DNA of 50,813 bases from Bacillota bacterium (lineage in GTDB: Bacteria > Bacillota > Bacilli > Alicyclobacillales > SLC66), in contig JAJZEE010000015.1 in the NCBI GenBank assembly GCA_021805735.1, positions 1 to 50,813 of the forward strand. Direction: 5' to 3'. A program made the position numbers and the translations under genes. Positions within the stretch are counted from its first letter, which is position 1. Each line of letters starts with the position of its first letter. The notes beneath the pieces are model-generated. The model searched no databases. It was not told the origin of the DNA and saw only the letters and a list, made by a program, of their open reading frames with translations. Of this stretch, positions 2,172 to 46,094 are shown one piece after another.

Positions 2172-3239
2172 GTGGTTCAAATCGATCGTTACCATGCTAA
2201 TCCATTGATTACTCCCGAGGACGTAACGCCGATTATACCAGGTTGTGAAGTGGTGGGAGTGTTTAATGCGGCTACGGCGGTGTTTGAAGAGGAAATCATC
2301 CTGATTCTCCGTGTCGCGGAGAGCGCCATTGTGTCAGAGCGAGGCCAGATTGTGGCGCCGGTGTATGATCCGGCGGTCCGCGATGTTGTGTTCGTGCGGC
2401 TGAACGCAGACGATGTTCGCTACGATTTTTCGGACCCGCGTGTGATTAGGGCACGCGAATCGTCCACTTCGTCATTCCTGACGTCCATATCCTACCTCCG
2501 GTTGGCGCGAAGCCAGGATGGACACCATTTCACCGTTGAGGATAGGGCGTTTTTGTTTCCGCACAACGAGTTGGACGCTTACGGGATTGAGGATCCGCGG
2601 TGTTCAAAGGTAGGTGACCAATACTACATTGCGTACACGGCTGTTTCGAGACTGGGAGCCAGTGTCGGTCTGGCATCCACGCAGGATTTTACAAATGCCG
2701 TCCGGCACGGAATCATATTTCCCCCCGAAAATAAAGACGTCGTCCTGTTCCCGGAAATGATTAACGGGCGGTACTATGCCATCCACCGACCGGTGCCAAG
2801 CGGGATCGGCGCGCCTGAGATGTGGATTGCGGAATCCAGGGATCTCATTCATTGGGGGAACCATCGATTTCTGCTTGGCTTGCGCAGGAACTTCTGGGAC
2901 TGCAAGCGGATTGGGGCCGGTGCAGTACCGATTCGTACGCCCGACGGTTGGCTGGAGATCTACCATGCCGTGGATGAGAGAGATCGGTATTGCCTGGGAG
3001 CGGTTCTTCTGGATCTTCACGATCCCTCTGCAGTGCTGGCTCGTACGGATCGTCCGATTCTGATTCCGGAAGAACAATATGAGACCTCGGGATTCTTTTC
3101 CAATGTTGTGTTTTCCTGCGGGGCAGTTGTCGTGAACGACAGGCTGCGCATCTACTACGGAGCGGCGGATGATTCCATGGCGTGCATGGAGTTGCGGATG
3201 CAGGAGGTGCTGAACGAATTGCGGGCGGTTGTGGCGTAG
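2172..3239 (+). CDS. GH130-family glycoside phosphorylase or glycosidase
   Basis: A GTG start follows AAAGGA by eight bases, 36 bases after the previous stop. The 355-residue length fits the family. The five-bladed beta-propeller signature is visible: IPGCEVVGVFNAATAVF near the N-terminus, then GIEDPR carrying the conserved Asp, then repeated blade strands (YYIAYTAVS, MWIAESRDLIHWG, WLEIYHAV, LRIYYGAADD). GH130 enzymes phosphorolyse or hydrolyse beta-mannosides, for example mannosyl-glucose or beta-1,4-mannooligosaccharides, in the cytoplasm. Whether this member is a phosphorylase depends on phosphate-binding residues that I did not assign. Together with the upstream permease it suggests uptake and cleavage of a beta-mannoside. 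Confidence 0.88.
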   Translation: MVQIDRYHANPLITPEDVTPIIPGCEVVGVFNAATAVFEEEIILILRVAESAIVSERGQIVAPVYDPAVRDVVFVRLNADDVRYDFSDPRVIRARESSTSSFLTSISYLRLARSQDGHHFTVEDRAFLFPHNELDAYGIEDPRCSKVGDQYYIAYTAVSRLGASVGLASTQDFTNAVRHGIIFPPENKDVVLFPEMINGRYYAIHRPVPSGIGAPEMWIAESRDLIHWGNHRFLLGLRRNFWDCKRIGAGAVPIRTPDGWLEIYHAVDERDRYCLGAVLLDLHDPSAVLARTDRPILIPEEQYETSGFFSNVVFSCGAVVVNDRLRIYYGAADDSMACMELRMQEVLNELRAVVA

Positions 3240-6563: not shown

Positions 6564-8360
<1,797 letters not shown>

Positions 8361-8383
8361 CCTTTTTTTGCTTGCATTAGGAT

Positions 8384-9556
8384 CTATGGAGGCATCACAA
8401 ATCGCATGCCAGAATGCGCCCGGATCAGTGTCACGCTCACCGCCTGCAGGGAATCCGGACGCAACCTGATCGAACGTAATGCCTCCGTCTTTGTGTGGAG
8501 AGGCCACAGAAAGCCGTATCGCCGATAGGCCTGTTGTCCCAGCCCGAGTACATCGCTGTGCAGGGCGACACCCGCTTGAAACGTTCTCATCACGTCGCGG
8601 GCCATGCGCGTTTGAATCTGTTCGGTCAGTTGCAGGACCTGGATTTCTTGCGATTGCTCCGCCAAGTCCGCCTTCCCGCGAATGCGAATGGTGAAAAAGG
8701 TCCTTCCATGTCGTTGCACCGAACTGATTTTTACCTTGTTATAATGCAGATACACTGTGGCAATCAGGGGGCGACGGATAAATAGAGGAACGCGAAGGCC
8801 GTCGGTGCGCGCCCACATAAGCCCCATCAAAGCGTTGCGCGGCATCCATCCGACAAAACGTCGATTGGAGAAAACGCCCACGGAAGAGACGGTCATGAAA
8901 CTCATCTTGTCGCGTTCTTTGTACCATGTCACTTTTTTGGGCGTATCCATAGACAATTCGGGCAGCAATGGAGATATCCCGGGTTCGTTCAATTCGCGCA
9001 GGAACGTGTGAATCCTGACAGACGGAAAGACGCGGCCGAACACTCTAACTTCGTTCGGATTATTGATGTACGTATAGAGCGGATTTGGTTCCAGGGGCAT
9101 TTTCGTTTGGAACAGTTTCACCAGCGGCGCTCGCGTGCCGTATACCCAGACGGTTGGTCGGATTTCACGGTAACGCAACAATGGATCGATGACATCCAGA
9201 TAGTGGGTTTTCAGGAGGCTTTCGTGCAGAATGAGAGTCGTGAACTGCGACCACATCAGTCGCTTGGGGCTCGTCGGGAACATGTTGTTGACCGTTTCTA
9301 TCCAGCTGTTGCCCCGTGCCCGCACGACATAGACAGGAGCGGCTTTTTCCGACATCGCTTTTTCGCTGGTCTCGGTAACCACGGGCACATTTAAGATAGT
9401 TGCGTACATGGTGTAAACCCCTTTGCGGTAACTGACGGCGACTTCATGAATGTACGCAATGTTGTCGAGTCCTGCGGAATCCCAGCACCCAGTGGTCAGA
9501 AGAGCGGGGAAGAGCGCCACTATCCAGCGCCAAGTTTTCCTGACTGAGACGGTCAT
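8384..9556 (-). CDS. Germinant receptor lipoprotein, Ger(x)C family
   Basis: The ATG at 9556 overlaps the stop of the upstream gene (ATGA), and the resulting N-terminus is a lipoprotein signal: a basic start, a hydrophobic stretch and the lipobox LLTTGC, with the Cys expected to be lipidated. The upstream extension of the frame has no such logic and is rejected. About 390 residues, as usual for GerAC-type subunits. Family cues are the CWD start after the lipobox, then NIAYIHEVAVSY, and the C-terminal domain that ends with YGFLWPLH. It would sit on the outer face of the spore inner membrane and help the A and B subunits sense germinants. Last gene of a B-A-C operon. The germinant cannot be predicted. 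Confidence 0.9.
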   Translation of the reverse strand: MTVSVRKTWRWIVALFPALLTTGCWDSAGLDNIAYIHEVAVSYRKGVYTMYATILNVPVVTETSEKAMSEKAAPVYVVRARGNSWIETVNNMFPTSPKRLMWSQFTTLILHESLLKTHYLDVIDPLLRYREIRPTVWVYGTRAPLVKLFQTKMPLEPNPLYTYINNPNEVRVFGRVFPSVRIHTFLRELNEPGISPLLPELSMDTPKKVTWYKERDKMSFMTVSSVGVFSNRRFVGWMPRNALMGLMWARTDGLRVPLFIRRPLIATVYLHYNKVKISSVQRHGRTFFTIRIRGKADLAEQSQEIQVLQLTEQIQTRMARDVMRTFQAGVALHSDVLGLGQQAYRRYGFLWPLHTKTEALRSIRLRPDSLQAVSVTLIRAHSGMRFVMPP

Positions 9557-11040
9557 TTTTTGGGCGCCCCCCTCCGCACGCGGTCGGCAGTCCGCAATGA
9601 TCGCGGTCGTATGTTCATCCGCGTCCATTTGATGCGTATGAACGTATCTTTCCAATCGGACCATTCAAACGGGGAGAAAGGGGACAGATAGGAAACTCCA
9701 AAAGAACGAAGTCCGGCCCAATGCGCCACCAACAGAACGATGCTAAGGACAATGCCGATATCTCCAAATACGGTGGCCATGATCAGGAACAGAAAGCGCA
9801 GGATGCTCACGGCGTTGGAGAGAGTAAAATTGGGGATGGTGAACGTCGATACCGCCGTAATGCCCATGATCACCAACATCCCGGTGCTGGCGAGTCCTGC
9901 CCGAACCGCCGCGTCGCCGACCACAACCGTTCCGATGATTCCGACGGTCTGTCCTGCGGCTCTCGGCAACCGCAACCCGGCTTCGCGGAACAATTCAAAA
10001 ATAATGAGCATCACAAACGCCTCGATCGGCGTAGGGAACGGAACGCCGCGGTGCGCGCTGACAAGCGACAGCAGAAGGAAAATCGGCAGGGTGTCCTGGT
10101 GGTATTCGGTGCTGGCCACGTAGATCGACGGCAGAATCAGGGAAATGAGCAAACCCACCCACCGAAGAACACGGGTCATGGTGGCAAAGGGGAATCGATC
10201 CTGATAATCGTCGACTGATTGCAACAGTTGCTGCAAAGTGGCTGGCGCAATGAGCGCCGTCGGCAAGTTGTCGGTGACCAGAACGACTCGTCCTTCCGAC
10301 AGAACGGCTGCCGACTTGTCTGCGCGTTGTGTGGAGTCAAAGGTAGGGAATAAGGTGAGCGCCCGGTCTTCGAGAAGCTCTTCCAAATGGGCGCTCTCTG
10401 TGAGTTCATCCATGTCAGCAATGCCGCTCAGTCGGCGCCGGACCGCGTCGATCAGCGAGGGGCGGGCGACGTCTCGCATATATAGAAGGGCGATACGGGT
10501 GTGAGAGCGGCGGCCGATAGAAAAATACTCGCAACACAAATCGGGCGTTGGCAGTCTCTTGCGGATTAAGGCCACGTTGTCGACGATGTTTTCCACGAGT
10601 CCGTCGCGGGGTCCCCGAATCGACGTCTCAATTGGCGGATCTTCAGGCGTCCGTTCCGGTTTTTTCGTTTTGTCCACGGTCAATACGCCTTCATAACCAT
10701 CCAAAAAGAACAATGTCTGACCGCTGAAGAGGGCGTCAACAGCGCGACTCCACTTCGTTGCCACAGAGGCGTCAGGCGCTCTGAGATGGTCCCGGAATTC
10801 GTGAAGGGAATTGTACGGACCGCGTCTGAAGGTCTCCTGCAAAAGTGGCATAAAGGTCTGCGTAACACGTTCAACATCGGTGCTTCCATCCAAATAGACG
10901 CCCCATACGCGAACGAAATGTTCATCGGAATCGTCGCCCAACAAAAAGGAGAAGGGTTTTACGTCCTGACAGTGGGATAACACGTGTTCCTGCAGCCAAT
11001 CTTGACTGGCCTTCAACGATTTGGAAATAGGAGAACTCAT
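9553..11040 (-). CDS. Spore germination protein GerA family (subunit A)
   Basis: The ATG at 11040 overlaps the preceding stop (ATGA) and is served by a G-rich site; the 12-residue-longer frame is rejected. The product has 495 residues: a soluble N-terminal region, then a membrane domain with several helices. Family hallmarks include DGLVENIVDNVALIRKRL, GRVVLVTDNLPTALIAPAT and the segment YHQDTLPIFLLLSLVSAHRG leading to PFPTPIEAFVMLIIFELFREAG. GerA-type A subunits form an oligomeric nutrient-gated ion channel in the spore inner membrane. It is translationally coupled to both neighbours. Confidence 0.95.
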   Translation of the reverse strand: MSSPISKSLKASQDWLQEHVLSHCQDVKPFSFLLGDDSDEHFVRVWGVYLDGSTDVERVTQTFMPLLQETFRRGPYNSLHEFRDHLRAPDASVATKWSRAVDALFSGQTLFFLDGYEGVLTVDKTKKPERTPEDPPIETSIRGPRDGLVENIVDNVALIRKRLPTPDLCCEYFSIGRRSHTRIALLYMRDVARPSLIDAVRRRLSGIADMDELTESAHLEELLEDRALTLFPTFDSTQRADKSAAVLSEGRVVLVTDNLPTALIAPATLQQLLQSVDDYQDRFPFATMTRVLRWVGLLISLILPSIYVASTEYHQDTLPIFLLLSLVSAHRGVPFPTPIEAFVMLIIFELFREAGLRLPRAAGQTVGIIGTVVVGDAAVRAGLASTGMLVIMGITAVSTFTIPNFTLSNAVSILRFLFLIMATVFGDIGIVLSIVLLVAHWAGLRSFGVSYLSPFSPFEWSDWKDTFIRIKWTRMNIRPRSLRTADRVRRGAPKK

Positions 11041-21981: not shown

Positions 21982-23193
21982 TTGGACTTCTCGTATTCGG
22001 AAAAGGTCAAGCGGTTGCAGGCAGAAGTAACCGAATTCATGAATGAACATGTTTATCCCAATGAGTCCGTGTACAACGAGCAGTTGAAAGCGCTCCCAGA
22101 CCGTTGGGGAGCAGTGCCGCCCATTGTCGAGGAACTCAAGGAAAAAGCCAGGACTGCCGGGTTGTGGAACCTCTTTTTGCCTGACAGCGACTACGGGGCG
22201 GGGCTCAGCAATCTGGAATATGCGCCGCTGTGCGAGATTATGGGACGGTCGCTGATTGCGCCGGAAGTGTTCAACTGCAACGCGCCAGACACGGGGAACA
22301 TGGAGGTGCTGGTCCGCTATGGATCGGAGAAACAAAAGGAGACCTGGTTGACGCCTTTGTTGAACGGTGACATCCGTTCGTGCTTCTCCATGACAGAACC
22401 GGACGTCGCTTCAGCCGATGCGACCAACATCTCAGCCAGCGTGGCGCGCGACGGCGACGAATATGTGGTCAACGGTCACAAGTGGTGGTCATCTGGAGGC
22501 GGCGACCCCCGATGCAAGATTGCGATTGTGATGGGCAAGTCCAATACGGACGCCCCCAAGTATGAACAGCAGTCCATGATACTGGTTCCTCTCGACGCGT
22601 CAGGGGTAACGGTGGAGCGGATGGTGCCGGTCTTCGGCTACGACCATGCTCCTCACGGCCATGCGGAGATCACCTTTGCAAACGTGCGGGTTCCGTCAGA
22701 CAACATGATCTGGGGGGAAGGGAAAGGGTTTGCGATCGCGCAAGGGCGACTGGGTCCTGGACGCATCCATCACTGTATGCGCGTGATTGGCGCAGCGGAA
22801 CGCGCCCTCGAATTACTCTGCGCACGAGTGGAACACCGTATAGCTTTTGGCAAGCGTTTATCCGACCAAGGGGTCGTCCAGGACTGGATTGCCCAGTCGC
22901 GCATGGAGATTGAGCAGGCAAGGCTGTTGACCCTCAAGGCCGCTTACATGATGGATACGGTCGGGAATAAAGCAGCCAAGATGGAAATTGCCATGATCAA
23001 GGTGGTGGCTCCGAATATCGCGCTAAACGTGCTCGATCGTGCGATTCAGGCCTTCGGAGGAGCTGGGGTGAGCGATGATTTCCCATTGGCCGCACATTGG
23101 GCCAATGCGCGTACTCTGCGCATCGCGGATGGTCCTGACGAAGTGCACCGTGCCCAAGTCGCGCGTTACGAGTTGCAGAAATATCGGAAATAG
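21982..23193 (+). CDS. Acyl-CoA dehydrogenase, ACAD10/11-like
   Basis: A 403-residue flavoprotein that oxidises an acyl-CoA to the enoyl-CoA. The TTG start at 21982 follows GAGGGGGAAGG. Family features: [15 protein letters not shown], the FAD-binding WWSSGGGD region, [20 protein letters not shown], and the C-terminal [16 protein letters not shown] with [13 protein letters not shown]. These match the ACAD10/11 branch, which in animals is fused to or paired with a phosphotransferase-like domain that acts on 4-hydroxyacyl-CoA. An APH-like kinase gene lies two genes downstream, which supports the same pathway here. First gene of the TetR-controlled operon. Confidence 0.93.
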
Positions 23194-23214: not shown

Positions 23215-23829
23215 ATGAAGGACGCTGAGAAACGAATGAAAGAGAAAATCACTCAAGTGAGTATTCAATTATTTGAACACAAGGGATTTAGCGAAACGTC
23301 GATTCAGGACATCTGCGACGGACTCGGCGTCACGAAAGGAACGTTCTACTACTACTTCACAAGTAAAGAAGAACTGTTGATGGACATCCATCTGCGCTAC
23401 ATCGACGACATGTTGCGGCGCCAGGAGCAGATCATCAACGATCCGGACAAGAATTCCAGGACGAAGTTGTTTGACGTTGTCCATATGCTGATTCGGACGA
23501 TCGAACGACAGGGAGCCAGTGCGCGCGTATTTTTCCGCGAAATGCGGCACCTGAATGAAGAGCGGTTGGCGTCGATTGTAACGAAACGCAATCAATTTCG
23601 GGCGAATATTGAGACTCTACTGAGAATGGGCGTGGAAGCGGGCGAATTTCGAAGAAACTTGAACGTCAAAATTGCTGCGTTGGGGATCCTTGGCATCACG
23701 AACTGGAGCTACCAATGGTTCCGTCCGACCGGAGACATGTCAGATCGGGAAGTGGCCGAGATCTTTGCGGCTATGATTCTGCAGGGAATTGCGAGTGAAT
23801 CCGGCTTGCAGGAACATTTTCCGGGATAG
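23215..23829 (+). CDS. TetR-family transcriptional regulator
   Basis: 204 residues. The N-terminal helix-turn-helix is clear: QLFEHKGFSETSIQDICDGL then GVTKGTFYYYFTSKEELL. The C-terminal ligand domain is helical and resembles FadR/YsiA-type regulators of acyl-CoA genes. It lies inside the operon between the dehydrogenase and the kinase-like gene, so autoregulation through the palindrome at 21948-21965 and induction by an acyl-CoA are plausible inferences. The ATG at 23215 has only a weak ribosome site and may rely on translational coupling to the upstream gene 21 bases away. Confidence 0.92.
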   Translation: MKDAEKRMKEKITQVSIQLFEHKGFSETSIQDICDGLGVTKGTFYYYFTSKEELLMDIHLRYIDDMLRRQEQIINDPDKNSRTKLFDVVHMLIRTIERQGASARVFFREMRHLNEERLASIVTKRNQFRANIETLLRMGVEAGEFRRNLNVKIAALGILGITNWSYQWFRPTGDMSDREVAEIFAAMILQGIASESGLQEHFPG

Positions 23830-23838
23830 AGAAAGCGG

Positions 23839-24915
23839 GTGATCGGCATGGAAGACACGATCCCGGTTCGCAGCGGAGAAGAGTTGGACATGACCAGACT
23901 GGAAGCGTTTTTGCGTGTCCACATCCCAGACTTGCCGAACGGGCCATTGCAAGTGAAGCAGTTTGCCGCAGGGCATTCGAATCTGACCTACAGTCTCCAG
24001 GTCGGCGAGTGGGAGGCGGTTCTGCGCCGCCCTCCGCTCGGACCCGTGGCGCCAAAGGCTCACGACATGGAACGAGAATACACCATCCTTAAGGAACTCC
24101 ACCCGTACTATCCACTCGCGCCGAAACCACTGGTGTTTTCGAGAGACGCGACCGTGGTGGGCAGCCCCTTTTTTGTCATGGAGCGAAAACACGGCGTGGT
24201 TCTCGATACGGAGTTTCCCGAAGGAGTGACGGTGACACCGGAGTTGTGCCGCAGGCTGTCGGAGACGATGGTGGACGAGTTGGCGAAACTTCACTCGATA
24301 GACTATGCAAAAACCGGGTTGGCCAGCACGACTCATCCAGAAGGATTCATGGAGCGTCAGGTTCGCGGTTGGATTTCCCGGTCTGAGCGGGCGACAATCG
24401 GAGACGTACCTGGGATCGAGGAACTGAAGAAGTGGCTCGTGCGCCATACTCCGCCCGTGTCTGGAGCGACGATCATTCACTACGATTACAAGTTCAACAA
24501 CGCGATGTTTACGCCGGATCTGTCGAAGATGGCGGGGCTGTTCGACTGGGAGATGACGACTGTCGGAGATCCCCTCGCGGATGTGGGAACCGCAATGAGT
24601 TACTGGGTTCAGGCGGACGATCCGGAATTGTTGAAAAAGGGGCTTGGGAAACCGCCAGTGACGGTGCAGGACGGGTTCATGACGCGACGCGAATTCGTCG
24701 CGGCCTATGCAAAGCGCAGTGGTCGCGATATCTCCCATTTTCGCTTCCATGCAACTTTTGGCTATTTTAAGCTGACCGTCATTGTACAGCAGATTTACTA
24801 TCGATGGAAGGCGGGTCAAACTGCAGACCCGCGTTTTGCCCATATGGACCGGACCATCGAGAGCCTGGTTCAGTATGCCCTGACTACTGCGAATTCCGCG
24901 AACGGCGGAATATAA
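23839..24915 (+). CDS. APH-family phosphotransferase, ACAD10/11 kinase-like
   Basis: About 358 residues from the GTG at 23839, or 355 from the ATG at 23848. The aminoglycoside-phosphotransferase fold is shown by the catalytic loop IIHYDYKFNNAMF (H-x-D with Asn five residues on) and the metal-binding LFDWEMTTVGDPLADVG. The first part has FAAGHSNLTYSLQV, the nucleotide-binding loop, and VLRRPP. In ACAD10/11 proteins this domain phosphorylates the 4-hydroxyl of 4-hydroxyacyl-CoA so that the dehydrogenase domain can eliminate phosphate. With the ACAD10/11-like gene in the same operon this is the likely role rather than antibiotic resistance. Confidence 0.88.
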   Translation: MIGMEDTIPVRSGEELDMTRLEAFLRVHIPDLPNGPLQVKQFAAGHSNLTYSLQVGEWEAVLRRPPLGPVAPKAHDMEREYTILKELHPYYPLAPKPLVFSRDATVVGSPFFVMERKHGVVLDTEFPEGVTVTPELCRRLSETMVDELAKLHSIDYAKTGLASTTHPEGFMERQVRGWISRSERATIGDVPGIEELKKWLVRHTPPVSGATIIHYDYKFNNAMFTPDLSKMAGLFDWEMTTVGDPLADVGTAMSYWVQADDPELLKKGLGKPPVTVQDGFMTRREFVAAYAKRSGRDISHFRFHATFGYFKLTVIVQQIYYRWKAGQTADPRFAHMDRTIESLVQYALTTANSANGGI

Positions 24916-24935
24916 AGAAGGAGGTTCGTGCGAAG

Positions 24936-25709
24936 ATGACAGACTTGATCGTAAGTGAAGATGGGCCAGTGCTTAGCCTGACTTTGAATCGACCAAGAGC
25001 TCTTAACGCGTTTAGCGCGGAAATGGTTGAGGGGCTTACAGCGAACTTTCGGGATGCTCAAAAACGGAACGACGTGCGGGTTATCGTCGTGTCCGGCGCA
25101 GGGAAGTCTTTCAGTGCCGGCGGGGACGTCAAGACGATGGGCGAGGCGTCTTCGGCGCAAGTGTACGATCACGTTGGCAAGTTAAACGAATGTATCCTGG
25201 CGATGCAGGAGTTGGAGAAGCCCGTCATTGCCGCAGTACACGGCTTTGCCGCTGGCGCCGGGTTTAATCTCGCGATGGCCTGTGACCTGATTGTGGCAGC
25301 ACAGGACAGTCAGTTTGTTCTGAGTTTCACTCAGGTCGGGCTGATCTCAGACGGGGGCGGGTCTTATTTTCTGCCGCGCATCATTGGCTCGCACCTGGCG
25401 AAGGAGTGGTTCTTCTTGGCTGAACCCATCCCTGCGACCCGGGCACATGAACTTGGCCTGGTGAATCGGCTCGTACCCGCTGATGACCTGGAGGAGGAAA
25501 CGATGCGATTGGCCCGGCGACTGGCGAATGGACCCGCCAAAGCCTATGGCATGATGAAACGCATCATTGACAGTTCTCTCAACTCCACACTTAACGAGGT
25601 CCTGCAGGCGGAGCGCATCGCGCAAACAATGATGGTTGCCACCGAAGACCACCTCGAAGGAGTGCAGGCGTTTCGGGAAAAACGCGCTCCCAAGTTTCAC
25701 GGCAGGTAG
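24936..25709 (+). CDS. Enoyl-CoA hydratase/isomerase family protein
   Basis: 257 residues of the crotonase fold. The oxyanion-hole segments are seen in SFSAGGDVKTMG and the VHGFAAGAGFNLAMACDLIV region, and GLISDGGGSYFLPRIIG contributes further active-site positions. It would hydrate or isomerise the enoyl-CoA formed by the dehydrogenases. The ATG at 24936 follows AAGGAGG by eleven bases; the longer frame from 24804 overlaps the kinase-like gene and is rejected. The glycine-rich DGGGS in place of a Glu at the usual catalytic site suggests an isomerase or another crotonase reaction rather than a standard hydratase. Confidence 0.92.
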   Translation: MTDLIVSEDGPVLSLTLNRPRALNAFSAEMVEGLTANFRDAQKRNDVRVIVVSGAGKSFSAGGDVKTMGEASSAQVYDHVGKLNECILAMQELEKPVIAAVHGFAAGAGFNLAMACDLIVAAQDSQFVLSFTQVGLISDGGGSYFLPRIIGSHLAKEWFFLAEPIPATRAHELGLVNRLVPADDLEEETMRLARRLANGPAKAYGMMKRIIDSSLNSTLNEVLQAERIAQTMMVATEDHLEGVQAFREKRAPKFHGR

Positions 25710-25743: not shown

Positions 25744-26913
25744 ATGGATTTTCGACTCAGTCTGGAAGAAAAGATGATTCAGCGCACAGTCCGGAATTTT
25801 GTGAAGAATGAACTGATGCCATTGGAGCAGGACGTACTGCGCAACGAACGGGAGGGAAGGCCTGGACTCGACCCGGAGACGTTGCGGGTGTTGCAGCACA
25901 AGGCGAAGGCAATCGGTTTCTGGGGCATCAACACGCCGGAGGAATATGGCGGCGCGAACCTCGGATCGCTCGCTATGGCCATTACCCTCATGGAGTTGGC
26001 GCGTACTTTCGTGCCGTTTGATTTCGGCGGTTACGCAGACAACATCCTCTATGCCTGCACTGACGAACAGAAACAGCGATACCTGATTCCGACCATTGAG
26101 GGCACTCGACGTTCCTGCTTTGCCTTGACCGAACCCGGTGCGGGTTCGGACGCCGCCAATATCCGCGCCACCGCAGTCAAAGATGGGCGGGAGTGGGTGC
26201 TAAACGGCGAAAAAATCTTCATTACAAACGGCAACGAAGCAGACTTCGCGATGGTGTTCGCGGTCACCGACAAGGAGAAGGGTCCGCGCGGAGGCATTAC
26301 GTGTTTCCTTGTCGACCGGGAGCTGGGGTGGCGCTCCGAACGCGTACGCACCATGGGCGAGTGGGACCCCGCCGCACTCATCTTTGAAGACGTCCGTGTG
26401 CCGGAGGAAAACGTGCTGGGCGAAGTCGGATATGGCCTGGAACTGGCAATGCGCTGGATTGGCGCCGCCCGCTGGGCGATTCCGGCGCGTGCCGTCGGAT
26501 CGGCCGAACGGTTGCTCAACATGGCCATCGAATACGCCAGGACCCGTACTACCTTTGGCGAGCCGATTGCTGATCGGCAGGCGATCCAGTGGATGATCGC
26601 AGACTCAGCCGTCGAGATTGACGCGACCAAGTGGATTACTCTCAAGGCCGCGTGGATGGCGGATGAAGGGATGGACAACCGACATCAGGCTTCCATGGCC
26701 AAACTGTACGGCGCGAACATGGCCAACCGCGTCGTTGATCGGGTGTTGCAGATTCACGGCGGCATGGGCTACACGAAGGAACTCCCCATTGAGCGCTGGT
26801 ATCGTGAAATGCGGGTGTTCCGCATCTTTGACGGCACGGATGAGATCCAACGCCACATCATTGCGCGCAACCTGATCAAGGGTCACGTGCGAGTTGACGA
26901 TTTTCTGGATTAG
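25744..26913 (+). CDS. Acyl-CoA dehydrogenase
   Basis: 389 residues with the family pattern: FALTEPGAGSDAANIRAT, IFITNGNEADF, YARTRTTFGEPIADRQAIQW, then IHGGMGYTKELPIERWYREM and RIFDGTDEIQRHIIARNL. It oxidises a short or medium acyl-CoA. The ATG at 25744 follows GGGAGGCG. It differs from the ACAD10/11-like enzyme at 21982, so the operon handles two oxidation steps or substrates. Directly after its stop, six bases on, begins a truncated ligase frame, which marks a deletion join. Confidence 0.95.
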   Translation: MDFRLSLEEKMIQRTVRNFVKNELMPLEQDVLRNEREGRPGLDPETLRVLQHKAKAIGFWGINTPEEYGGANLGSLAMAITLMELARTFVPFDFGGYADNILYACTDEQKQRYLIPTIEGTRRSCFALTEPGAGSDAANIRATAVKDGREWVLNGEKIFITNGNEADFAMVFAVTDKEKGPRGGITCFLVDRELGWRSERVRTMGEWDPAALIFEDVRVPEENVLGEVGYGLELAMRWIGAARWAIPARAVGSAERLLNMAIEYARTRTTFGEPIADRQAIQWMIADSAVEIDATKWITLKAAWMADEGMDNRHQASMAKLYGANMANRVVDRVLQIHGGMGYTKELPIERWYREMRVFRIFDGTDEIQRHIIARNLIKGHVRVDDFLD

Positions 26914-26919
26914 ACTGCC

Positions 26920-27168
26920 GTGGCGCTGTTCCTGCACAATTCGCCGCAGTACTTTATTGCCCACTACGCCATCCAGATGATCGGGGCCATCGTCGGCCCC
27001 TGTAGTCCCTCGTTCAAGGCTCTGGAATGGGCCTATCAGGTATCCGATATGGACGCGGAGGTCATCATTGCTTCTGACACTCTGTATCCGGTTGTAGCGC
27101 AGGCTCGCGCGGAAAATAAACTTCGCCGCATCATCGTCACTCATTACGGAGCTAGACTCTGGTCATAA
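26920..27168 (+). pseudogene. Internal fragment of an AMP-dependent acyl-CoA synthetase
   Basis: 82 codons read VALFLHNSPQYFIAHYAIQM, then GAIVGPCSPSFKALEWAYQV and VIIASDTLYPVV, which align with residues about 60-140 of acyl-CoA ligases. The N-terminal 50-60 residues and all of the AMP-binding and catalytic region are missing. The frame has no good ribosome site. A ligase would have activated the acid for the dehydrogenases in this operon. Loss at both ends next to a TnpB element indicates deletion. Confidence 0.8.
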
Positions 27169-27199
27169 AATAGATACCCAATGATGCATCATAGTGTTC

Positions 27200-27403
27200 A
27201 TGAAAAACATCGTTGGCATGAGCAGGGCAGCAAAGATGCTGGACGTGACGGCCAAGACGATGCAACGGCGGGATCAAGAGGGACGACGCGTCCGGGATTG
27301 CAACGAGACAGGCGGCCTATGGTCGCATATCGAGCGCAACACGAAGGCTCGATTGACGGAATCAGCATCGCGTAAAGATCGGCTCACGCGCCTCGGCTTT
27401 TAG
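27200..27403 (+). pseudogene. Truncated IS607-type TnpA (HTH part of a serine recombinase)
   Basis: The frame reads MSRAAKMLDVTAKTMQRRDQ and EGRRVRDCNETGGLWSHIE, matching the MerR-like helix-turn-helix start of IS607 TnpA (xxxAAKxLGVSxKTLQRWDREG). The serine-recombinase catalytic domain is absent and the frame closes after 67 codons. Presumably non-functional. Confidence 0.65.
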
Positions 27404-27545
27404 TGGTTTGGACATGACGACCTATGACGATCTCTTTAACGTCGCGCGGCGTTGCAATCCGAACATATATTCGATATACTGATATCAAGACCCTTTTCAC
27501 AAGCATTTCGTTCCGAAACAAGCTCGATGAAGCGCTGAGGGGAGG

Positions 27546-28898
27546 ATGCGGCGAGTGGAACTGGCGCACAGGATCCAGCTCCGTCCGACCCTTGAGCAGG
27601 AGGCGTATTTTCGTCAGGCGGCCGGATGCGCCAGGTTTACATGGAATTGGGCGGTGGCGCATTGGACAGAGGACTTCGATGCGGGTCATGCGCCTACATG
27701 GTCACAATTGAAGAAGCGGTTCAACGCGATCAAGTATGAAGCCTTTCCATGGATGAAAGAGGTACATCGAGACGCCCATGCGCAGCCCTTTGCCAACCTT
27801 GGCAAAACGGTCAAGCAGTTCTTCTCGGACATGAAGGCGGGCAAGAACGCACACAAGCCTCAGTTCAAGAAGAAGGGCCAGTGCCTGGATTCGTTCTATG
27901 TGGCCAATGACAAGTTTGCCGTGAAGGGAGTACGCATCCAGTTACCCAAACTCGGTTGGGTGGACATGACGGAATCGCTGCGGTTCACGGGGAAGATTCT
28001 GAGTGCGACGGTGTCCCGGACAGCCGATCGGTGGTTTGTATCGATTCAGGTGGATGTACCGAAGGAAGCGGCGAAGAGAAAGCGGACTTCACATCATGTG
28101 GAGGGTGTGGATCTCGGCGTGAAGACAGTCGTGGTTCTCTCTACGGGCGAAGGGATCGACTCACCCAGGCCGCTGAAGAAAGCGCTGCGTCGCCTTCGAA
28201 TTCGACAACGACGACTGAGCAGGAAGCTGGAAGCGGCGAAGCGGGAGGCAAAGATAGAGGGCAAGATCCCCCAAAGCGTGAAGCTGCCCGAATCGAACAA
28301 CCGACGGCGAGATGCGGCGACCTTGGCCAGACTCCATGCCCACATCGCGAATATCCGTTCCGACTTTACGCACAAACTCACCACTCGGCTGGTGCGTGAA
28401 AACCAAGCCATCGGCGTCGAGGATCTGTGCGTGCAGGGGATGATCAAGAATCACCGATTGGCTCTGTCCCTATCCGATGTCGGCTTCGGCGAGATACGTC
28501 GGCAATTGGGGTACAAATCCGTGTTATACGGTACGACAGTGGTGATGGCCGATCGCTTTTTCCCCTCCTCCAAACGGTGTTCATGCTGTGGCTATATCCT
28601 GCCGGAACTTCCGTTGTCCGTTCGGGAGTGGACCTGCCCGCAGTGCGGCACGAAGCATGATCGTGACGTGAATGCGGCGCAGAATCTCAAGAGGCTCGCA
28701 ACCTGTTCGATTGGCTTTGCCAACGAACCATCTGCGCTACCCGTGGCGAATCAGGCGGCGACGTCTGATACAGGCGCCGGTGTAAGAGCAAGACCGGCAA
28801 ATGGCGGGAAAGTCACGCCTGTCAGATACGAAGCGGGCCATCAAGGGGCTTCGGGGCAGGAACAGAATGCTGCGCACTATTGCGCACATTTTGGATAG
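27546..28898 (+). CDS. tnpB: TnpB, RNA-guided nuclease of IS200/IS605/IS607-type elements
   Basis: A 450-residue protein with all three RuvC acids: Asp189 in GVDLGVK, Glu292 in GVEDLCVQGM and Asp374 in HDRDVNAAQN, and the zinc finger CSCC and CPQC between the second and third. The N-terminal AGCARFTWNWAVAHW and FPWMKEV are typical. TnpB cuts DNA guided by a reRNA encoded at the end of the element, a Cas12 ancestor. The last 70 residues form a low-complexity tail after the RuvC core, and that stretch usually overlaps the guide RNA scaffold. The catalytic set is intact, so it may be active although its transposase partner is broken. Confidence 0.93.
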   Translation: MRRVELAHRIQLRPTLEQEAYFRQAAGCARFTWNWAVAHWTEDFDAGHAPTWSQLKKRFNAIKYEAFPWMKEVHRDAHAQPFANLGKTVKQFFSDMKAGKNAHKPQFKKKGQCLDSFYVANDKFAVKGVRIQLPKLGWVDMTESLRFTGKILSATVSRTADRWFVSIQVDVPKEAAKRKRTSHHVEGVDLGVKTVVVLSTGEGIDSPRPLKKALRRLRIRQRRLSRKLEAAKREAKIEGKIPQSVKLPESNNRRRDAATLARLHAHIANIRSDFTHKLTTRLVRENQAIGVEDLCVQGMIKNHRLALSLSDVGFGEIRRQLGYKSVLYGTTVVMADRFFPSSKRCSCCGYILPELPLSVREWTCPQCGTKHDRDVNAAQNLKRLATCSIGFANEPSALPVANQAATSDTGAGVRARPANGGKVTPVRYEAGHQGASGQEQNAAHYCAHFG

Positions 28899-29063
28899 CA
28901 GTTTGATAGTTCACCGTACAAGGCGGCGGCCAAACACCTGATTGACGATGTCATCGATCCCCGTGATACGCGTAGGTTTTTGTATCGTACCGTCGATCTG
29001 GCGTGTCGCCGCAACGGCGGAAAAGGGGAACGCCTGCTGGCGAATTGGCCGACTGGTTTCTAA
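28899..29063 (+). pseudogene. C-terminal fragment of an acyl-CoA carboxylase carboxyltransferase subunit
   Basis: Without a start, the frame reads SPYKAAAKHLIDDVIDPRDT, then RRFLYRTVDLACRRN and ends ANWPTGF. The segment YxAAxxxxIDDVIDPRDTR is the near-terminal signature of biotin-dependent carboxyltransferases (propionyl- or methylcrotonyl-CoA carboxylase beta). The remaining 450 or so residues are gone. Together with the ligase fragment it shows that the original operon contained a ligase and a carboxylase, a gene set common for branched-chain acyl-CoA breakdown. Confidence 0.8.
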
Positions 29064-29114: not shown

Positions 29115-29216
29115 GCGCCGTAGCACTGACATGTGTTTACGATCAAATAGATATGGTTTAGCCGCTCTTATGATGGGAGTCGAGCGGTGAGGCCGCTGGG
29201 AAGGATCGTCGTCTTT

Positions 29217-30077
29217 ATGAGAGAAGGATATGTGGCTGTTACCGGAGGGCGTATCTGGTACAAAATGATTGGCGAAGGCAGTGGAACTCCACTCGTATTG
29301 CTGCATGGCGGACCCGGATTTTCTAGCCTGGGAACAGACGGTTGGCTGGGCGCGATGGGAGACCAACGACGCGTGATTGTATATGACCAATTGGGCGCGG
29401 GAAAGTCGGACAGGCCGAATGATGTTGCGCTTTGGCGAGCGGATCGCTTTGTCGAGGAACTCGGGCAACTGCGTCGCGCCCTGGAACTCGATGAAATTCA
29501 TCTCCTGGGCCACTCCTGGGGAACGATGCTGGCGGGCGCTTATTTGCTCACACAGCCGACCGGTGTGCGGAGCGTCATTTTTTCGAGCCCATGTCTGAGC
29601 GCTCCGCGATGGGCGAAGGACCAGGAGGCGCATTTGAAGCAGTTGCCTGTGGACGCGCAGGGCAGCATCGCACGGTGCGAAGCCGCTGGCGCGACTGACA
29701 GTGAGGAGTATCAAGCGGCCATGATGCTGTTTTACAAGCGTTATGTGTGTCGACTGAACCCTTGGCCTCCGGTGTTGGAGCAAGCCTTCGAGACGGCGAA
29801 TATGCAGGTTTACAATACCATGTGGGGGCCGTCAGAGTTTTCTGCCACCGGGAACCTGAAAGAGTTTGACGTCACGCCAAGTTTGCAGGAAATCAGAATT
29901 CCCACTCTGTTTCTCTGTGGGAGATATGATGAAGCCACACCGGAAACAACAGCCTATTACCGAAGCCACGTTCGGGATTCACAGTATCATGTCTTTGATC
30001 ACAGCGCCCACATGACCTTTCTGGAGGAGCCGGACGAGTATCTTCGTGTGGTCGGGAATTTCTTGGATACCATGTAA
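29217..30077 (+). CDS. Proline iminopeptidase-like alpha/beta hydrolase
   Basis: A 286-residue hydrolase. HGGPGFSS gives the oxyanion region, GHSWGT the nucleophile Ser, CGRYDEATPE the acid and SAHMTFLEEP the catalytic His. The pattern and the start MREGYVAVTGGRIWYK match tricorn-type proline iminopeptidases, which release N-terminal proline or other residues from short peptides in the cytoplasm. The ATG at 29217 follows GGAAGGA; a GTG at 29187 in frame is possible. It stands alone between a terminator and a gene remnant. Confidence 0.9.
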   Translation: MREGYVAVTGGRIWYKMIGEGSGTPLVLLHGGPGFSSLGTDGWLGAMGDQRRVIVYDQLGAGKSDRPNDVALWRADRFVEELGQLRRALELDEIHLLGHSWGTMLAGAYLLTQPTGVRSVIFSSPCLSAPRWAKDQEAHLKQLPVDAQGSIARCEAAGATDSEEYQAAMMLFYKRYVCRLNPWPPVLEQAFETANMQVYNTMWGPSEFSATGNLKEFDVTPSLQEIRIPTLFLCGRYDEATPETTAYYRSHVRDSQYHVFDHSAHMTFLEEPDEYLRVVGNFLDTM

Positions 30078-30216: not shown

Positions 30217-30318
30217 TGTCGATTCCTCCTCGTAGTCGCTCTGCATTCCTGGTTTAGGCGGGCGCAGCATATGAATCCGGCTGCAGGGACATTTTCCGGA
30301 ACAGCGAGAGTAGGTTTT

Positions 30319-46001: not shown

Positions 46002-46009
46002 GCATGTGA

Positions 46010-46094
46010 GTGTAAAAGGCAAACTCGTCGAAAGGCGGGGGCGCAAAACTAGAGGGGCTAAGGCGCGTACGCGCTAGGCCAGCCAGCTGCCGCG
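46010..46094 (+). promoter_or_regulatory. Cyclic di-GMP-I (GEMM-I) riboswitch
   Basis: The conserved blocks are in order: GGCAAAC at 46018-46024, the GAAA tetraloop hairpin, GCGCAAAAC, then GGGGCTAAGGCGCGTACGCG and the tetraloop-receptor side TAGGCCAGCCAGCTGCCG. This matches the GEMM-I pattern (GCAAAC, GAAA, GACGCAAAG, CUA, AGCCAGGUUGCCG). It senses the second messenger c-di-GMP. The last eight bases, CTGCCGCG at 46087-46094, are exactly complementary to CGCGGCAG at 46114-46121, the 5' part of the terminator. Ligand binding should free the terminator, so high c-di-GMP probably switches the gene off; the sign of the response is inference. Confidence 0.9.

What the first reader, a model, noticed from the sequence alone, without database searches (positions are those of the whole stretch)
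26914..29063. Deletion scar around a TnpB element in an acyl-CoA operon
A ligase fragment lacking both ends lies on the left and the last 50 codons of a biotin-dependent carboxyltransferase on the right of a TnpA-remnant/TnpB element. The operon must have lost the ligase, biotin carboxylase and most of the carboxyltransferase. The left join lies only six bases after the dehydrogenase stop. This predicts loss of a carboxylation-dependent (leucine- or propionate-type) pathway.
Basis: partly seen in the sequence, partly recalled or inferred. Interest (0 to 1): 0.6.

Follow-up and report, generated by a model that had tools for sequence, protein, structure and literature searches.

The report
Mobile element replaced two operon genes
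A small jumping element sits exactly where most of two neighbouring fat-metabolism genes are missing from an uncultured bacterium, an ordinary kind of gene loss that is well documented here because a close relative still has the intact genes.

Summary
A congener (G001 = L007) carries the intact operon: ACD1-TetR-APH-ECH-ACD2-ligase (556 aa)-carboxyltransferase (504 aa)-hydrolase. Against it the window shows two separate lesions. (1) 245 bp is missing at 26918/26919: the ligase's leader, start and about 75 codons. The element is not involved. (2) 2,623 bp is missing between ligase codon 151 and carboxyltransferase codon 452, and a 1.75-kb TnpB element with an IS607-like TnpA remnant fills the gap, complete at both ends. 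The three other full copies found sit in sites whose empty versions (GGAG) survive in a congener with contiguous flanks. The window copy's two ends instead lie at two different targets, which points to element-mediated deletion, most simply recombination between two copies (inferred). No biotin carboxylase was lost: none lies between the two genes in six of six intact relatives. Loss of leucine or propionate carboxylation is not supported, because other carboxyltransferases, biotin carboxylases and methylmalonyl-CoA mutase remain. A third congener (G002) lacks ECH-ACD2-ligase-carboxyltransferase through a different join without the element. This is ordinary operon erosion.

The parts
21982..23193 (+). 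acyl-CoA dehydrogenase ACD1, intact
   Evidence: Pfam Acyl-CoA_dh; dN/dS to L007 0.088
23215..23829 (+). TetR-type regulator, intact
   Evidence: Pfam TetR_N/TetR_C_24
23839..24915 (+). APH-family phosphotransferase, intact
   Evidence: Pfam APH
24933..25709 (+). enoyl-CoA hydratase ECH, intact
   Evidence: Pfam ECH_1
25744..26913 (+). acyl-CoA dehydrogenase ACD2, intact
   Evidence: Pfam Acyl-CoA_dh; 97% aa to L007
26918..26919 (.). lesion 1: join where 245 bp of L007 (7411-7655: leader, start and about 75 codons of the ligase) are missing
   Evidence: blastn to L007, junction comparison
26919..27149 (+). ligase (AMP-binding) internal fragment, codons 76-151 of 556
   Evidence: Pfam, L007 alignment
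27150..28901 (+). TnpB element with IS607-like TnpA remnant; lesion 2: it stands where 2,623 bp of L007 (7887-10509) are missing
   Evidence: three other full copies with the same ends and contiguous empty sites
27194..27403 (+). TnpA remnant (HTH part and a KDRLTR-GF motif)
   Evidence: blastp-short to an IS607-type TnpA in L217, E 3.6e-4 and 0.012 for the two parts
27546..28898 (+). TnpB, 450 aa, with D/E/D motifs and a CxxC zinc ribbon
   Evidence: NCBIfam guided_TnpB 309.5 bits over cut-off 100; motifs
28902..29063 (+). carboxyltransferase C-terminal fragment, codons 452-504 of 504
   Evidence: L007 alignment
29187..30077 (+). alpha/beta hydrolase, intact, downstream neighbour also in L007 and G002
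   Evidence: Pfam; synteny

Best explanation
Shown: relatives have the full operon with a ligase-carboxyltransferase pair at its 3' end, and the window carries two lesions there: a 245-bp deletion that beheads the ligase, and a 2,623-bp deletion occupied by a TnpB element whose two ends lie at two different places of the intact sequence. Inferred: the element family inserts at GGAG-type sites without target duplication; copies sat in the ligase and in the carboxyltransferase in the same direction; homologous recombination between them removed the DNA between and left one element. The ligase-carboxyltransferase pair is dispensable in this genus, while the rest of the operon stays open and looks constrained.
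For: Intact syntenic loci in G001/L007, G005/L068 and G012. Both element ends agree with 3 other full copies. For 3 of 3 of these a congener holds the empty site GGAG with contiguous flanks; G002 reads GGGG at one of them and GGAGA at two places similar to another. In L007 the two flanks of the window copy are a GGGG (7885-7888) and a GGAG (10508-10511), 2,623 bp apart. GGAG occurs 30 times in the 3,242-bp ligase-carboxyltransferase region, 1 per 108 bp, so an unrelated endpoint exactly there is unlikely. dN/dS to L007 of ACD1, TetR, APH, ECH and ACD2 is 0.08-0.16 and of the two fragments 0.09 and 0.05, so the fragments have hardly decayed. G002 lacks ECH-ACD2-ligase-carboxyltransferase, APH being joined to the hydrolase.
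Against: No genome with two copies at the two sites was seen, so the intermediate is inferred; G000 has only 2 full copies of the element, which makes two within 2.6 kb unlikely beforehand. The window copy shows no clear mosaic against the other copies. L007 has GGGG at the ligase site, so a GGAG there in the window's ancestor is assumed (it would be a synonymous change). G000, G001 and G002 are drafts in many contigs, and read coverage over the joins could not be checked. The rates of the remaining genes mostly reflect time before the loss.
Confidence: 0.6

Rival explanations
1. One insertion in the ligase, then a one-ended reaction by a TnpA acting in trans between the element's right end and the GGAG in the carboxyltransferase, deleting the interval in one step.
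For: Right end complete and abutting a GGAG; needs one insertion only; G000 has one full-length (C127) and one partial (C106) IS607-type TnpA over the cut-off; copy number is low.
Against: IS607-type transposition is described as pairing two transposon ends (abstract and passages of PMC6188088). I recall no described one-ended deletion for this family; the listings showed none by title or abstract start, but one search listed 15 of 18 papers and only 10 of 436. Whether the ends of the C127 element resemble this element's was not tested.
Confidence: 0.25
2. An unrelated deletion whose right endpoint happened to fall at the element's edge.
For: Lesion 1 (245 bp) and the G002 join show that element-free deletions occur in this operon.
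Against: The right end is complete to its last base and abuts a GGAG, which occurs once per 108 bp in the region.
Confidence: 0.06
3. Assembly chimera in a draft genome.
For: G000 is in 170 contigs; repeats are common chimera points.
Against: The only other full copy in G000 is 88% identical, which should not collapse; the joins lie exactly at the element's ends.
Confidence: 0.06
4. The lost genes mean loss of a leucine- or propionate-type carboxylation pathway (first reader; compatible with any mechanism above).
For: A carboxyltransferase of the propionyl-CoA carboxylase beta superfamily was lost.
Against: Biotin carboxylase/HMGL-like, two carboxyltransferases and methylmalonyl-CoA mutase remain; the lost protein is 33-37% identical to the retained ones.
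Confidence: 0.05

Closest known systems
IS607-family transposons (here non-autonomous, TnpB-carrying)
   Same: No target duplication, no inverted repeats pairing the two ends, G-rich target, TnpA remnant with an HTH part like an IS607-type TnpA, intact TnpB (PMC6188088 abstract and passages).
   Different: TnpA is only a remnant; the observed target is GGAG and the right end is AG, whereas GG at ends and target is described for IS607; TnpB scores below the curated cut-offs of both the IS607 and the IS200 TnpB models, higher on the IS200 one.
Deletion by recombination between direct copies of an insertion sequence
   Same: One element left, its ends at two sites, the interval gone.
   Different: The two-copy intermediate was not seen.
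Propionyl-CoA carboxylase beta / methylmalonyl-CoA decarboxylase alpha superfamily (lost gene)
   Same: TIGR01117 mmdA 333 bits; best solved relative 1vrg_A, E 7.5e-87.
   Different: Far below the mmdA cut-off of 998.8; paired with an AMP-binding ligase and with no biotin carboxylase between in 6 of 6 loci.

Membership tests
IS607-type element | serine-recombinase TnpA with N-terminal HTH | tested here: inconclusive
   Only a remnant; no Pfam family over cut-off, one-to-one match to an IS607-type TnpA E 3.6e-4
IS607-type element | simple insertion without target-site duplication | tested here: met
   3 of 3 other full copies have empty sites with contiguous flanks in a congener
IS607-type element | GG exchange dinucleotide at ends and target | tested here: inconclusive
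   Empty sites are GGAG; GG precedes the left end in 3 of 4 copies, AG in the fourth; the right end is AG
IS607-type element | no terminal inverted repeats | tested here: met
   of 5 inverted pairs of 12 nt or more in 27120-28930 none joins the two ends
RNA-guided TnpB | RuvC-like D/E/D motifs and zinc ribbon | tested here: met
   motif strings present in 4 of 4 copies (that these are the catalytic residues is recalled); NF040570 over cut-off
RNA-guided TnpB | guide RNA from the right end and nuclease activity | not testable with these tools
   no Rfam match in the element at gathering thresholds, which does not exclude a guide RNA
Acyl-CoA carboxylase operon | biotin carboxylase beside the carboxyltransferase | tested here: not met
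   none between ligase and carboxyltransferase in 6 of 6 loci; the PF02785 search of 12 genomes, these six included, gave no hit near the pair

The most novel reading that the evidence does not exclude
After the deletion the TnpB element carries, next to its right end, the carboxyltransferase sequence that intact alleles still hold beside a GGAG. If its guide RNA is made, TnpB could cut intact alleles in sister or incoming chromosomes, and repair would copy in the element together with the 2.6-kb deletion. The element would then drive a gene-loss allele, not merely itself.
Probability: 0.08. Interest if true: 0.6.

Novelty: new member of a known kind. Interest (0 to 1): 0.22.

Why it matters
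It is a clean and apparently recent example of a small TnpB element taking part in gene loss, with the intact state, three comparison insertions and a differently made loss in a third species. It also corrects the metabolic prediction: what was lost is a ligase-carboxyltransferase pair of unknown substrate, not demonstrably a leucine or propionate pathway.

Tried and rejected
Biotin carboxylase loss: rejected, none between the genes in 6 of 6 intact loci. Pathway loss: rejected. Mosaic element as proof of recombination between copies: sliding identity gave no clear switch. A second copy of the lost genes in G000: not found; G000 has 4 carboxyltransferase-domain matches and G001 has 5, and apart from the window fragment the ligase matches in G000 are 28-41% identical, the best-scoring 36%. 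Guide RNA by Rfam: nothing in the element. In one search the rates for the hydrolase and the carboxyltransferase fragment were computed out of frame and are discarded; one search replaces them. In one search tblastn hits covering 40% or less of a query and lower-ranked overlapping hits were dropped; open frames under 90 aa and overlapping shorter ones were dropped. Not followed: G017 (60% complete) and G003 match only parts of TetR-APH. Literature: searches are listings; PMC6188088 and PMC5358919 were seen as passages including the abstract start (12 of 39 and 12 of 20 places shown), PMC11870625 as abstract and outline. PMC5358919 shows IS607 movement within a strain; the passages seen told of no IS607 deletion.

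Full report
What is there. The finding's coordinates are right. Downstream of ACD2 (25744-26913) lie a ligase fragment, a TnpB element and the last 53 codons of a carboxyltransferase. The decisive comparison is L007, a contig that is identical to G001:C92 of a same-genus genome. There the same genes run collinearly, with a full ligase (7432-9102) and a full carboxyltransferase (9159-10673) between ACD2 and the hydrolase. Identity is 94.8% left of the lesions, 92.6% in the ligase fragment and 87.9% to the right.

Two lesions, not one. Aligned to L007, the window lacks 7411-7655 (245 bp) at 26918/26919 and 7887-10509 (2,623 bp) where the element stands. The first takes the ligase leader, start and about 75 codons. 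It is separated from the element by 231 bp of ligase, so nothing ties the element to it. The second takes the ligase from codon 152 on and the carboxyltransferase up to codon 451.

The element. Four full copies were found in 9 genomes searched: the window copy and C156 in G000, C52 and C136 in G001. They are 89-94% alike. TnpA is degenerate in each, and TnpB is open in all four with its D/E/D and zinc-ribbon motifs. For each of the 3 copies other than the window's, a congener holds the empty site GGAG with contiguous flanks. G002 reads GGGG at the C52 site and GGAGA at two places similar to the C136 site. At the C156 site its left flank aligned only in part, leaving an 85-base stretch that ends in GGAG. 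The insertions are thus simple and without duplication, as reported for IS607 (PMC6188088, abstract and passages). The window copy alone has flanks that map 2,623 bp apart: left at a GGGG in the L007 ligase, right at a GGAG in the carboxyltransferase. Both look like normal element junctions, so the interval was most likely removed through the element. Whether by recombination between two copies or by TnpA in one step is not shown.

What was lost. The ligase scores below the cut-off of each of the 25 best of 106 matching NCBIfam models, all ligases or synthetases/synthases of CoA thioesters by name. The carboxyltransferase belongs to the propionyl-CoA carboxylase beta superfamily: 1vrg_A E 7.5e-87, mmdA model 333 bits against a cut-off of 998.8. 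Of 61 genomes searched by DNA, the window's own included, 28 have some match and 6 have long matches to both genes (G001, G005, G012, G037, G050, G056). In these six the ligase-carboxyltransferase distances are 56, 46, 34, -71, 96 and -118 bp (open-frame starts not refined), so no biotin carboxylase was there to lose. In G037, G050 and G056 no ACD2-like gene lies in the 13-19 kb fetched, so the pair behaves as a module. Conversely, three of the 80 loci (L013, L016, L031) have APH-ECH-ACD2 without the pair in the 9-10 kb downstream; only L007 and L068 of the 80 have it.

What remains. In G000 the carboxyltransferase domain is found at C82, at C80 and in two AccD/AccA-like genes on C137, and biotin-carboxylase C-domains at C12, C120 and C96. 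C120 carries a biotin carboxylase beside an HMGL-like gene near its start, and C80 ends with a carboxyltransferase. In G001 the corresponding carboxyltransferase and biotin carboxylase lie about 3.5 kb apart on C83 with an enoyl-CoA-hydratase-type gene between, so in G000 a contig break probably divides one cluster (inference). The C82 protein matches a propionyl-CoA carboxylase beta chain at E 4.4e-218, and methylmalonyl-CoA mutase is present at C28 and C9. The prediction of a lost leucine or propionate pathway therefore has no support; substrates were not tested.

Timing and repetition. dN/dS to L007 is 0.088 ACD1, 0.157 TetR, 0.091 APH, 0.116 ECH and 0.082 ACD2; 0.175 hydrolase, 0.094 ligase fragment (76 codons) and 0.052 carboxyltransferase fragment (53 codons). 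The fragments have hardly decayed, though on few sites, so the loss looks recent relative to the split from G001. In G002, APH is joined to the hydrolase region with 6 bases between, in mid-contig; ECH, ACD2, ligase and carboxyltransferase are gone from there and no element stands at the join. Of the three genomes of the genus that one search returned, two have thus eroded this end of the operon, by different joins. A shared earlier step cannot be excluded, because the G002 deletion covers both window lesions.

Judgement. This is an ordinary process with an unusually complete record. The bold reading, that TnpB now could target intact carboxyltransferase alleles (18 of 20 bases next to the right end match L007, where GGAG precedes them), is untested. 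A gene-drive role of TnpB is reported for IS200/605 elements in plasmids (PMC11870625, abstract and outline only).

Noticed in passing
window 46008-46094 +: c-di-GMP-I riboswitch aptamer, 75.5 bits against a gathering score of 35.
   Followed up: no
G000:C110:1710-1775, G002:C6:3412-3477, G001:C136:30220-30285: A 66-bp relic of only the right end of the TnpB element in each of the three genomes of the genus; DNA beside the G001 one also matches the same contigs of G000 and G002.
   Followed up: no
L002 3654-3734 (query 3054-3134): A dispersed repeat of about 80 bp with dozens of copies in G001 and G002; related stretches lie in the window at 526-597 and 30260-30289.
   Followed up: no
L239 7486-7694: G002 has an insert with a long palindrome between TetR and APH that the window and L007 lack.
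   Followed up: no
L174, L175, L176 (G037, G050, G056): Ligase-carboxyltransferase pair away from the ACD operon, beside different neighbours, without biotin carboxylase between: a conserved two-gene module of unknown substrate.
   Followed up: partly
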